A stretch of 41,276 bases of DNA. Origin: Rouxiella silvae (GTDB lineage Bacteria > Pseudomonadota > Gammaproteobacteria > Enterobacterales > Enterobacteriaceae). The DNA lies in the NCBI RefSeq assembly GCF_002093625.1, contig NZ_MRWD01000054.1, positions 1-41,276 on the forward strand. Direction: 5' to 3'. Below the pieces are notes generated by a model that saw only the letters and a list, made by a program, of their open reading frames with translations, did no database searches and had not been told where the DNA came from. Shown here piece after piece: positions 1 through 31,172 of this stretch (its first letter is position 1; each line of letters begins with the position of its first letter). The translations under genes were made by a program, and so were the position numbers.

Positions 1-1
1 A

Positions 2-77
<76 letters not shown>

Positions 78-171
78 ATTTTCTTCTTCAAATCACCAAG
101 CCAGTCACGATGCCTCTTACGGGCGTTTTTGCCTTTGCCAAAAATGTGTTGAATTAATTTTGTGAACAGAG

Positions 172-180
172 TTATCCACA
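172..180 (+). promoter_or_regulatory. DnaA box (TTATCCACA)
   Basis: This is a perfect high-affinity-type DnaA box (TTATCCACA) in the datA-like region, upstream of the IHF site. Confidence 0.7.
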
Positions 181-236
181 GATTACGTTCGTTTTTTGCA
201 CTGTGGGTTATTCGTACACTGGATATTGCCAAAAAA

Positions 237-249
237 TAACTCGTTGATT
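237..249 (-). promoter_or_regulatory. IHF consensus site
   Basis: TAACTCGTTGATT matches the reverse complement of the IHF consensus WATCARNNNNTTR at every fixed position. It lies in A/T-rich DNA between the two perfect DnaA boxes, which is the arrangement known for functional datA. Confidence 0.6.
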
Positions 250-332
250 TTTATCAATAAAAATTAATCACAAAACGTTATGGCGATCGCTTGCTCTTTT
301 TTTTGCAATTGATCGGCAAAGCAATTTTATTT

Positions 333-341
333 TTATGCACA
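333..341 (+). promoter_or_regulatory. DnaA box (TTATGCACA)
   Basis: This is a perfect TTATNCACA match in the same orientation as the box at 172-180. A one-mismatch copy (GTATTCACA) follows at 356-364, and another one-mismatch copy (TTATCCACC) lies inside queG at 959-967. Confidence 0.6.
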
Positions 342-378
342 GCGGGGATAATTCTGTATTCACAAAATAACCCCCATT

Positions 379-1536
379 TTATGCATCTCGCGGTAAACCT
401 TTTTCCACCGCTCTGATCAGCCTTTTCTTCTGCGAAGACTGCACTTCTACCTGATGTTCGCTTCTTCTGGCCAACTGCTGCGCGATTGCCCATTCGATAT
501 GTTCGTCCAGCATACTATTTTCCCCTTTTCTGCTTTGCAGCGTTAAAACGATGTTTTCATCGTAGGGGGCATTGCCCAGTGCCACAGAAATATTACGCAG
601 CCAGCGCAGGTGGCCAATGCGCCTAATGGGCGAACCTTCAGTGATGCGCAGAAACTTCTCCTCTTTCCAATTGAACAGCGCGATGAGCTCAGGTGCATGC
701 AGGGCGGCACGCGGGCTGAAATCATCTTCGTCGGTCAGTTGCGAGTAGCGATTCCACGGGCAAATAAGCTGGCAGTCATCACAGCCATAAATACGATTGC
801 CCATCAGTGGACGAAATTCTTCTGGAATAGCGCCCTCAAGTTCAATGGTGAGATAAGAGATACAGCGGCGTGCATCAACCTGATAGGGCGCAACGATAGC
901 ACCGGTCGGACAGATAGTGATGCAGGCCACGCAGCGCCCACACTGCTCTTCCTGTGGTTTATCCACCGGCAGAGGCAGGTCGATGAGGAGTTCGCCGAGA
1001 AAGAACCATGAGCCGGATTCTCGGTTAAGTATTAGTGAGTGCTTACCAACCCAGCCAAGCCCCGCCTTTTCGGCTAAAGGGCGTTCCATGATGGGGGCTG
1101 AATCAACAAATGGGCGGAAGCTAAGTGCCAGGTCAGGTTGGGACTCGGTGCAAAATGTCTGGATCATATCGCCCAGCTTTTTCAGCCTTTGGCGTAAAAC
1201 TTTATGATAGTCGCGACCTAACGCGTAGCGGCTCACGTAGCCAAGCGTTGGATTATTCAGCGTTTTTGCAAAGGCTGCTTTGGCCGGAAGATAGTTCATG
1301 CGCACGCTAATAACCCGCAGCGTTCCGGGCAGCAGCTCATGCGGACGGGCGCGTAACATGCCGTGACGCGCCATCCACTCCATCTCTCCATGATATTGTT
1401 TATCAAGCCATGCCTGTAGCTTTGGCTCTTCTGCCGACAGGTCGGTATCGCAGATGCCAACCTGTTGGAAGCCTAGCGACTGGCCCCATTGCTTGATATG
1501 TTGGGCTAATTGTTCGAGATCGAGGAGGTGCGTCAT
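379..1536 (-). CDS. queG: Epoxyqueuosine reductase
   Basis: QueG reduces epoxyqueuosine to queuosine in the wobble position of GUN-anticodon tRNAs, the last step of queuosine synthesis, using cobalamin and two [4Fe-4S] clusters. The 385-aa product has the usual length. Two cluster-binding motifs are visible: C199/C202/C205/C209 and a second set at C252/C255/C259, with C225 between them. The conserved Asp in FVDSAPIMER is D145, the likely proton donor. The ATG at 1536 overlaps the divergent nnr ATG by two bases. There is no clear Shine-Dalgarno for queG, and its promoter must lie inside nnr. A one-mismatch DnaA box lies inside the gene at 959-967. Confidence 0.96.
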   Translation of the reverse strand: MTHLLDLEQLAQHIKQWGQSLGFQQVGICDTDLSAEEPKLQAWLDKQYHGEMEWMARHGMLRARPHELLPGTLRVISVRMNYLPAKAAFAKTLNNPTLGYVSRYALGRDYHKVLRQRLKKLGDMIQTFCTESQPDLALSFRPFVDSAPIMERPLAEKAGLGWVGKHSLILNRESGSWFFLGELLIDLPLPVDKPQEEQCGRCVACITICPTGAIVAPYQVDARRCISYLTIELEGAIPEEFRPLMGNRIYGCDDCQLICPWNRYSQLTDEDDFSPRAALHAPELIALFNWKEEKFLRITEGSPIRRIGHLRWLRNISVALGNAPYDENIVLTLQSRKGENSMLDEHIEWAIAQQLARRSEHQVEVQSSQKKRLIRAVEKGLPRDA

Positions 1537-3049
1537 GACTAACCAAATTGAAAAACAGGACCTGCACAGTTTACCCTATTCCGTCTATTCTGCAGACTGG
1601 TTGCGGCAGGCCGAAGCACAAGCGGCGCAGGATACAGGCCTTTCATTGTTTACGCTAATGCAGCGTGCAGCGGCCGCCGCTTTTCGTGCTGCTCGACAGA
1701 AATTTCCCCATGCTACCCACTGGGTGGTGCTTTGTGGCCACGGCAATAATGGTGGCGACGGCTACGAAGTCGCGCGTCTGGCTAAAAATGCCGGTCTCAA
1801 CGTGACTCTGCTGGCGGTAAGCGGCTCAAAAATGCTGCCCGCCGAAGCTGAACAGGCAAGAAAAGGGTGGTTGAATGCCGGTGGGCAGGTTGGCGACATC
1901 AGCGCCGATTGGCCGCACGATGCAGACTTGCTGATTGATGCACTGTTGGGTACGGGGCTAACCTCGGCGCCGCGCGAACCGCTGGCGCAGCTCATTAAAG
2001 CGATTAATCAGCAACATGCGCCGGTTGTTTCCCTTGATATTCCGTCGGGGCTGGCGGCTGAAACCGGCACAACGGCGGGTGAAGCGGTTCACGCTGCGCT
2101 GACGGTAACGTTTATTGCCTTGAAACCCGGCCTGCTCACCGGACAGGCCCGCGACTATGTCGGTGAGTTGCAGCATAGCGCGCTGGGTCTCGAGAGTTGG
2201 CTGGGGGGGCATCGGCCTCTGCTGCAACGCCTAGACACTCGAAGGTTGGCGGAATGGCTCAAACCGCGTCGGCCCTGCTCTCACAAGGGCGAGCACGGAC
2301 ATTTGTTGCTGATTGGTGGAGATAGCGGTTTTGCTGGCGCCATCCGCATGGCAGCAGAGGCCGCGCTGCGTACGGGTGCAGGAATGGTGCGAGTACTTAC
2401 TCACAAACAACACATTGCGCCACTTCTCACCGCCCGTCCCGAACTGATGGTGCAGGCGTTGACCGATGCATCGCTGTCCGAGGGACTTGAGTGGGCCAGC
2501 ACTGTGGTCATTGGGCCGGGGTTAGGTCAGAACGATTGGGGAAAATCCGCTTTCAAACGCGCGTCCGAAAGCGAAAAACCTGCATTATGGGATGCAGATG
2601 CGCTTAACATGCTGGCAAAAAATCCACAGAAACGGCAAAATCGCGTCTTGACGCCTCATCCCGGTGAGGCCGCCCGACTGTTGGGTTGTACAGTGAAGGA
2701 AATTGAAAGCGACCGCTTACTTTCTTTGCAACGCCTGACCGAACGCTACGGTGGTGTCGTGGTATTAAAAGGCGCGGGTACGCTGATAGGCTCTGAAGAC
2801 GGCCAAGTCGCGATTGCCGACGTCGGTAACGCCGGTATGGCAAGCGGCGGCATGGGTGATATCCTTTCAGGCGTGATTGGCGCCTTGCTCGCCCAGAAGT
2901 TATCTTTTTATGATGCAGCCTGCGCCGGAACGGTAGTTCACGGTGCGGCGGCAGACATCATTGCGCAACGCCAGGGCACACGCGGCATGCTGGCAACGGA
3001 TTTGTTAACCTGGATAACCCCGTTGGTTAACCCTGACCTAGAAAAATAG
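1535..3049 (+). CDS. nnr: Bifunctional NAD(P)H-hydrate epimerase/dehydratase
   Basis: Nnr repairs damaged NADHX and NADPHX. The N-terminal domain epimerises the R and S hydrates and the C-terminal domain dehydrates the S form with ADP. The 504-aa product shows both halves: [12 protein letters not shown] at 69-80 in the YjeF_N domain, and in the kinase-like C-terminal domain HKGEHG near 250, GPGLGQ at 327-332 and [11 protein letters not shown] at 432-442. I chose the ATG at 1535 because GAGGAGGT lies just upstream and the protein then aligns with E. coli Nnr; an in-frame ATG at 1454 would add 27 unrelated residues. It heads the long cluster, 10 bp before tsaE. Confidence 0.96.
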
Positions 3050-31027: not shown

Positions 31028-31172
31028 GAGAGACTCCAGTCATATTATTCATTAAAGTTGTTGGTTGTATCTGATAGTGTCTTTGCACACAATAGCACCT
31101 TATGCACATCGTACTACGGCGACGATTTGCATAGCTATTTTAACAGGATAATGAAACATAGCAGGAGAGCTT

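What the first reader, a model, noticed from the sequence alone, without database searches (positions are those of the whole stretch)
78..378. datA-like DnaA titration locus next to tRNA-Gly and queG
Two perfect DnaA boxes (172-180, 333-341) in the same orientation flank a perfect IHF consensus (237-249), with a one-mismatch box at 356-364 and another inside queG at 959-967. This box-IHF-box order in a gap between glycine tRNA and queG matches the E. coli datA locus, where DnaA-ATP is hydrolysed after initiation. Each motif alone is expected about once or a few times in 41 kb, but the cluster within 170 bp at the syntenic place is not. datA conservation outside E. coli relatives is not well described, so this would extend it.
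Basis: partly seen in the sequence, partly recalled or inferred. Interest (0 to 1): 0.8.

Follow-up and report, generated by a model that had tools for sequence, protein, structure and literature searches.

The report
datA replication-brake site in Rouxiella
The gap between a glycine tRNA and queG in this Rouxiella genome holds the same DnaA- and IHF-binding layout as E. coli datA, the site that switches off the replication starter protein, and a longer-armed version sits beside queG in Vibrio relatives.

Summary
Observation confirmed, interpretation supported. Arms from the IHF site are 65/96 bp here, 65/97 in K-12; box 7 to box 3 is 182 bp against 183. DnaA-ATP hydrolysis was not tested.

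In 80 named queG loci the box 7-box 2 module lies beside queG in 40 of 40 Enterobacterales, 19 of 19 Vibrionaceae and 0 of 21 others. All 40 Enterobacterales have box 3 at 159-165 bp; 17 of the 19 Vibrionaceae have a last box at 273-281.

A motif search without position prior puts the IHF site so that right minus left arm is 31 bp in 83 of 111 Enterobacterales-type and 53 of 66 Vibrionaceae-type loci (shuffled controls 1-3 of 177), although both arms differ by 55-60 bp between families. This suggests an IHF U-turn kept in register; the tree-based test depends on dropping outlier IHF calls. The window is a new member of a known kind; the Vibrionaceae form may be a variant.

The parts
2..77 (+). 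tRNA-Gly(GCC), last gene of a probable glyVXY-like operon; the contig starts here
   Evidence: ARAGORN; three tRNA-Gly copies in all at this place in the close relative G003 and in R. badensis L033
109..127 (+). terminator-like hairpin behind the tRNA, possible counterpart of the glyVXY attenuator
   Evidence: consensus scan, 1 found against 0.4 in shuffles; folding z -0.19; weak
160..168 (+). DnaA box 7, TTGTGAACA, two mismatches, 3 bp upstream of box 2
   Evidence: sequence; same place in K-12 (TTGTAAACA); ACAGA[CG]TTATCCACA near queG in 181 of 202 loci with queG, some of them the same genome twice
172..180 (+). DnaA box 2, TTATCCACA
   Evidence: 2.00 bits in every column in 66 loci (loci were selected for this box)
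237..249 (-). IHF binding site, exact consensus AATCAACGAGTTA
   Evidence: K-12 has TAACCTATTGATA at the same +65 offset
272..332 (.). conserved block between IHF site and box 3, role unknown
   Evidence: many columns above 1 bit in 66 loci against a spacer mean of 0.60; no clear RNA-structure support
333..341 (+). DnaA box 3, TTATGCACA, 161 bp after box 2
   Evidence: 161 bp in 77 of 111 Enterobacterales-type loci, 154-165 in all 111; 74 of 107 after removal of identical sequences
160..341 (+). datA core, box 7 to box 3, 182 bp
   Evidence: 183 bp in K-12 by the same measure, equal to a published minimal length (PMC5742627, passage)
379..1536 (-). queG, convergent neighbour
   Evidence: 385-aa ORF; overlaps annotated queG by DNA match in E. 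coli; QueG-like loci

Best explanation
This is the Rouxiella orthologue of E. coli datA. After replication starts, IHF binds 237-249 and bends the DNA sharply, bringing ATP-DnaA on boxes 7 and 2 against ATP-DnaA on box 3; the complex speeds hydrolysis of DnaA-bound ATP and so prevents a second initiation. Read-through from the upstream tRNA-Gly operon may help to keep IHF off before the next initiation, as reported in E. coli. Shown here: layout, spacing, synteny, conservation, matching DnaA and IhfA. Inferred from E. coli work: binding, hydrolysis, timing.
For: Same gene neighbourhood as K-12. Same four elements, order and orientation, arms 65/96 against 65/97 bp. 40 of 40 named Enterobacterales loci carry boxes 2 and 3 at 159-165 bp. 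Element columns mean 1.56 bits against 0.60 in spacers in 66 loci, partly by selection. In a draw of 295 genomes of the order the box pair occurs once in each of 20 of 23 genomes of the window's family; the 3 misses are 1.0-1.2 Mb. DnaA is 92-93% identical to E. coli; by eye in the alignment only one residue differs from about residue 134 to the end, so the residues named for datA function in PMC5742627 (R281, R285, L290, R334) are kept. IhfA 94% identical. In two two-contig genomes of the genus the site lies 431 and 520 kb from dnaA, against about 510 kb in K-12.
Against: No binding, hydrolysis or replication assay. Box 4 of E. coli is not kept here and no box 1 equivalent was found upstream; neither belongs to the essential set in PMC5742627. 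In 39 of 177 loci (nine of them Vibrionaceae) there is a unique exact IHF site in this orientation, so in most the consensus is imperfect or not unique. Nine named Enterobacterales loci with 2.6 kb of flank show no tRNA-Gly there, so the read-through step cannot be general in that form. Four family genomes of at least 3 Mb matched neither search pattern (G460, G494, G500, G614); G500 and G614 keep box 2 but show no box 3 match.
Confidence: 0.9

Rival explanations
1. Passive titration only: the boxes soak up DnaA near the origin without promoting ATP hydrolysis.
For: Box clusters alone can titrate DnaA (PMC5835720, passages); the site lies 8-10% of the chromosome from dnaA in two relatives.
Against: Titration needs no fixed spacing, yet spacing stays within 154-165 bp in 111 Enterobacterales-type loci, the low-affinity box 7 is kept, and right minus left arm is near constant.
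Confidence: 0.07
2. Ordinary transcription control: the stretch is a terminator region between converging tRNA and queG, and the boxes act only as roadblocks.
For: A terminator-like hairpin follows the tRNA; a conserved block lies before box 3 and folds well in the window (z -2.98); DnaA box 2 and IHF attenuate read-through in E. coli (PMC10950094, sections).
Against: Folding z-scores over 66 loci are weak; the consensus fold was uninformative. Nine loci keep the element without tRNA-Gly within 2.6 kb; two small Vibrionaceae genomes keep the long-armed element although no QueG was found.
Confidence: 0.03
3. Chance cluster of DnaA and IHF motifs.
For: Single motifs occur at about chance rate in the window.
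Against: None in 400 simulated windows; boxes conserved in 40 of 40 named Enterobacterales loci.
Confidence: 0.005

Closest known systems
datA of Escherichia coli K-12 (NC_000913.3, between glyY and queG)
   Same: Place, four essential elements, order, orientation, spacing within 1 bp, similar distance from dnaA in two relatives, DnaA and IhfA partners
   Different: No box 1 or box 4 equivalent in Rouxiella; box 3 is TTATGCACA instead of TTATTCACA; function untested
DARS2 of E. coli
   Same: DnaA boxes with IHF sites
   Different: DARS2 core boxes are oppositely oriented (PMC13036160, passage) and Fis is needed (PMC10950094, PMC4585315); here boxes 7, 2 and 3 point one way; different neighbourhood
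Vibrionaceae element found here beside queG (70 loci among L074-L112 and L119-L173)
   Same: Same module ACAGA[CG]TTATCCACA, IHF-like site in the same orientation, last box in the same orientation, queG neighbour; tRNA-Gly within the flank in 14 of 19 named loci; right minus left arm mostly 31 bp
   Different: Box 2 to last box 262-281 bp; last box TTTTCCACA; an inverted box 18-19 bp after box 2 and TGTGNNTAA 47-48 bp before the last box
DnaA-box clusters of Bacillus subtilis and Streptomyces coelicolor
   Same: Clusters that repress untimely initiation (named in PMC10950094 and PMC5742627)
   Different: Called analogous to datA there; not compared here

Membership tests
datA (window locus) | Lies between the tRNA-Gly operon and convergent queG | tested here: met
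datA (window locus) | High-affinity boxes 2 and 3 in the same direction | tested here: met
   (by sequence; affinity not measured)
datA (window locus) | Low-affinity box 7 next to box 2 | tested here: met
   TTGTGAACA at 160-168. [quoted passage not shown]
datA (window locus) | IHF site between boxes 2 and 3 at native spacing | tested here: met
   65/96 bp against 65/97 in K-12
datA (window locus) | Box 4 downstream of box 3 (stimulatory in vitro, not essential in vivo) | tested here: not met
   GCGGGGATAATT at that place. Not a defining feature by PMC5742627
datA (window locus) | Near the origin | tested here: met
   by proxy: 431 and 520 kb from dnaA in relatives G003 and G004; the window's own assembly is in 128 contigs
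datA (window locus) | IHF-dependent DnaA-ATP hydrolysis; loss gives untimely initiation | not testable with these tools
   needs assays
datA (Vibrionaceae element) | Beside queG with the box 7-box 2 module | tested here: met
   19 of 19 named loci; related box 2-inverted box pattern in 141 of 159 genomes
datA (Vibrionaceae element) | Box 2 to box 3 spacing as in E. coli | tested here: not met
   262-281 bp in 66 loci, no pattern match in 4
datA (Vibrionaceae element) | IHF site between the boxes | tested here: inconclusive
   9 loci with a unique exact site in this orientation and 3 in the other; motif search places one at 120-125 in 51 of the 53 loci with posterior above 0.8, of 66
DARS | Oppositely oriented core boxes I-III | tested here: not met
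   boxes 7, 2 and 3 all +

The most novel reading that the evidence does not exclude
Vibrionaceae carry a long-armed datA, and the fixed quantity in both families is not loop length but its balance: right arm minus left arm is 31 bp while both arms differ by 55-60 bp between families. On the recalled geometry of the IHF bend this would place box 7 and box 3 at nearly equal distance from the bend, so evolution would be keeping a DNA hairpin that sets DnaA against DnaA.
Probability: 0.45. Interest if true: 0.7.

Novelty: new member of a known kind. Interest (0 to 1): 0.5.

Why it matters
The datA papers I could read are about E. coli. One layout in the Enterobacterales sampled here and a stretched layout in Vibrionaceae would date the system before their split or imply convergence, and give natural spacing variants to test how the IHF bend activates DnaA-ATP hydrolysis. 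It also nominates a DnaA-inactivating site in Vibrio species.

Tried and rejected
Extra boxes at 356-364 and 959-967 as part of the unit: rejected. A conserved RNA structure or shared terminator in 272-332: the window folds well (z -2.98), but per-locus z-scores over 66 loci average -0.36 on + and -0.28 on -; the consensus fold gave no structure, and its shuffled control gave none either, so it says nothing. The 15-mer ACAGA[CG]TTATCCACA as a stand-alone marker: not specific, 203 of 295 genomes of the order, perhaps including oriC (not checked). The E. coli small ORF yjeV looked unconserved by eye; not tested.

IHF-site calling with at most one mismatch and no motif model gave scattered sites and a lower overall correlation of the arms (0.45, 97 loci); I then used a motif model. 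For the contrasts I dropped 27 of 177 loci with posterior of 0.8 or less and 4 more with right minus left outside 15-45 (L128, L158, L179, L252). That second filter acts on the tested quantity: without it the correlation turns to -1.00 in Vibrionaceae and -0.98 in Enterobacterales, because one misplaced site lengthens one arm and shortens the other. Among Enterobacterales-type loci spacing parity shows no paired change and the filtered correlation is weak (0.17).

Full report
OBSERVATION. The gap runs from the tRNA-Gly end at 77 to the queG stop at 379. The contig starts in this tRNA; the close relative G003 and R. badensis L033 have three tRNA-Gly copies at this place. The genus is inferred as Rouxiella: QueG is 95% identical to R. 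badensis and 90% to R. aceris. The cluster is not chance: none in 400 Markov windows.

COMPARISON WITH K-12. In NC_000913.3 the order is glyV-X-Y, gap, queG. Box 7 TTGTAAACA starts 12 bp before box 2 TTATCCACA; the IHF site TAACCTATTGATA starts 65 bp after box 2 and box 3 TTATTCACA 162 bp after it. In the window the values are 12, 65 and 161, with TTGTGAACA, TTATCCACA, TAACTCGTTGATT and TTATGCACA. Box 7 start to box 3 end is 183 bp in K-12. One review gives the minimal datA as 183 bp in one passage and 262 bp in another (PMC5742627); another paper gives 187 bp (PMC13036160, passage). The 183-bp agreement supports the box 7 assignment, which I did not see spelled out in print. Some part of window 1-1560 matched in 5,375 of 5,426 E. 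coli genomes, and one place covered at least 80% of it in 4,867.

RELATIVES, NAMED. By my sorting of their titles 40 are Enterobacterales, 19 Vibrionaceae (Vibrio, Photobacterium, Enterovibrio) and 21 others (Shewanella, Alteromonas, Idiomarina, Pseudidiomarina, Pseudoalteromonas, Psychromonas, Moritella, Aeromonas, Oceanimonas, Bowmanella, one MAG). All 40 have box 2 and a box 3 with at most one mismatch at 159-165 bp; with window and K-12, 27 of 42 are at exactly 161 (which looked for box 3 only 155-169 bp away). One search widened this to any direct box at least 120 bp away. All 19 Vibrionaceae have the box 7-box 2 module near queG, 17 with a last box at 273-281; 0 of 21 others have the module within 700 bp, one of them (L105) with only 374 bp to look at. 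tRNA-Gly was found in the flank in 29 of 40 Enterobacterales and 14 of 19 Vibrionaceae; flanks were at most 2.6 kb and often shorter.

RELATIVES, UNNAMED. Box 2 followed by box 3 at 156-166 bp: 20 of 23 genomes of the window's family, 11 of 272 others in the order, against 3 of 295 genomes for the backward control. The three family misses are genomes of 1.0-1.2 Mb. Two of the 11 others (G045, G039; L252, L253) lie next to queG, so two more families may have it; the rest were not checked. A stricter 16-mer hit 114 of 198 family genomes; by my count of that table 62 of the 84 misses are under 2 Mb. I rechecked the other 22 with the box pair: 13 matched (neighbourhood not checked, and one of two hits in G486 looks unrelated). 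Of the nine left, four are at least 3 Mb (G460, G494, G500, G614) and five are 2.0-2.7 Mb and lack a QueG match. The 16-mer is not proof of datA: of 78 family stretches fetched, 67 have queG and box 3, 11 lack queG in the stretch, and of those 11 only L220 shows a box 161 bp on. The Vibrionaceae pattern hit 141 of 159 genomes; of 60 stretches fetched, 51 have queG and the module, 9 have no queG in the stretch.

CONSERVATION. I examined 222 loci: 80 named, 140 fetched, K-12 and the window. The named and unnamed collections overlap, so some genomes are present twice. QueG was found in 202; 20 had none within the stretch. For two of those 20 (G335, G374) a later search showed queG on the other side, because the pattern is palindromic and the fetch went the wrong way. 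Of the 202, 181 have the module within 700 bp of queG: 111 Enterobacterales-type (box 3 at 154-165 bp, 77 at 161) and 70 Vibrionaceae-type (66 with a last box at 262-281, 4 without a pattern match: L094, L095, L156, L171). Without identical sequences these are 107 and 64. In 66 loci with 161-bp spacing, under 85% alike, bits per column are 2.00 for box 2, 1.79 for box 3, 1.57 for box 7, 1.08 for the IHF site and 0.60 for spacers. Loci were selected for the module and for a box 3 match, so those values are partly by construction; the first six positions of box 7 and the IHF site were not selected. The right arm before box 3 holds a further conserved block of unknown role. An upstream box, mostly at -64 to -68 (at most one mismatch), is present in 75 of 111; none in Rouxiella.

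GEOMETRY. Let L be box 2 to IHF site and R IHF site to last box. Among 177 loci, 44 have one exact IHF site in the interval: 39 in the E. coli orientation, with R-L of 31 in 29 and 30-33 in 38 (the outlier is Proteus), and 5 in the other orientation. A motif search without position prior gives R-L of 31 in 83 of 111 Enterobacterales-type and 53 of 66 Vibrionaceae-type loci; three shuffled controls gave 3, 1 and 2 of 177. Without identical sequences it is 80 of 107 and 48 of 61. L is mostly 64-67 in the first and 120-125 in the second. On QueG trees with independent contrasts, after dropping weak and outlying IHF calls, L and R change together in Vibrionaceae (r 0.90; 12 contrasts same sign, 2 opposite, 3 one only; sign-permutation p 0.0008; 51 loci) and weakly in Enterobacterales (r 0.17; 29, 10 and 12; p 0.018; 95 loci); both together r 0.95, 146 loci, with one deep split between the families. 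Removing duplicates leaves this unchanged. But without the filter on R-L the sign reverses (-1.00 and -0.98), because two misplaced sites in each family dominate. Independent of any IHF call, Vibrionaceae totals are odd in 57 of 66 (list), 52 of 61 without identical sequences, as paired changes predict; loci are related, so these are not independent events, and Enterobacterales show no such parity. Three loci have a total of 262 with a candidate site at 120/142, an exception.

MECHANISM. In E. coli, boxes 2, 3 and 7 and the IHF site are essential and IHF cannot be replaced by HU (PMC5742627, passages); read-through from the tRNA operon lowers IHF binding (PMC10950094: abstract, first part of introduction, discussion). 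The Rouxiella DnaA alignment shows one difference from E. coli from about residue 134 to the end, by eye. I infer that the Rouxiella site works the same way. My added inference is that the constant R-L reflects a hairpin in which box 7 and box 3 lie at about equal distance from the IHF bend; the bend position is recalled from the IHF crystal structure, not computed here.

VIBRIONACEAE FORM. Around the shared module it has its own fixed parts: an inverted box TGTGGNTAA 19 bp (60 loci) or 18 bp (6) after box 2, TGTGNNTAA 48 bp (61) or 47 bp (5) before the last box, and TTTTCCACA as last box in 66 of 66 (61 of 61 without identical sequences). Of the 66, those fetched by pattern were selected for the inverted box. 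In G055 it lies 274 kb from dnaA on a 3.26-Mb contig. Two small genomes in which no QueG was found (G324, G339) keep module and last box at 276 and 279 bp. I do not file it as datA in the strict sense, because spacing was tested and differs; it may work like datA.

LITERATURE. Searches showed no description of a tRNA-queG datA outside E. coli in the listings or in the passages I read. PMC4585315 covers 59 E. coli strains (one results section and passages). PMC12371093 (passages) mapped DnaA boxes in E. coli and S. enterica. PMC6727663 (passage) says datA-like sequences may lie near oriC in some bacteria. PMC3937223 (12 of 15 passages) likens RctB sites on V. cholerae chromosome II to datA and names no DnaA datA there in what I saw. 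PMC4245941 (passages) reports DARS2 conservation in related species. The primary papers and all supplements were out of reach, so priority is open.

Noticed in passing
272-332 and 66 loci: Conserved block between IHF site and box 3 in Enterobacterales (AAAA.GTTA..GATC.CTTG...TTGA....CAA.G..TTTTTATTTTTAT), not mentioned in the passages I read; no clear RNA structure support.
   Followed up: partly
L039, L040, L042, L043, L046, L047, L067, L069, L070: Nine Enterobacterales loci keep the element beside queG with no tRNA-Gly within 2.6 kb, which questions how general the tRNA read-through control is.
   Followed up: no
L121 (G324), L125 (G339): Two small Vibrionaceae genomes in which no QueG was found keep the long-armed element.
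   Followed up: partly
L158, L159, L160, L163, L164, L170, L172: A second IHF-like site (one mismatch) 86 bp before the last box in seven Vibrionaceae-type loci.
   Followed up: no
L252 (G045), L253 (G039): Box pair at 165 and 161 bp next to queG in two further families of the order.
   Followed up: partly
L271 (G500), L272 (G614): One genus of the family keeps tRNA-Gly, box 2 and queG but shows no box 3 match.
   Followed up: partly
31100-31108: A single exact DnaA box elsewhere in the window.
   Followed up: no
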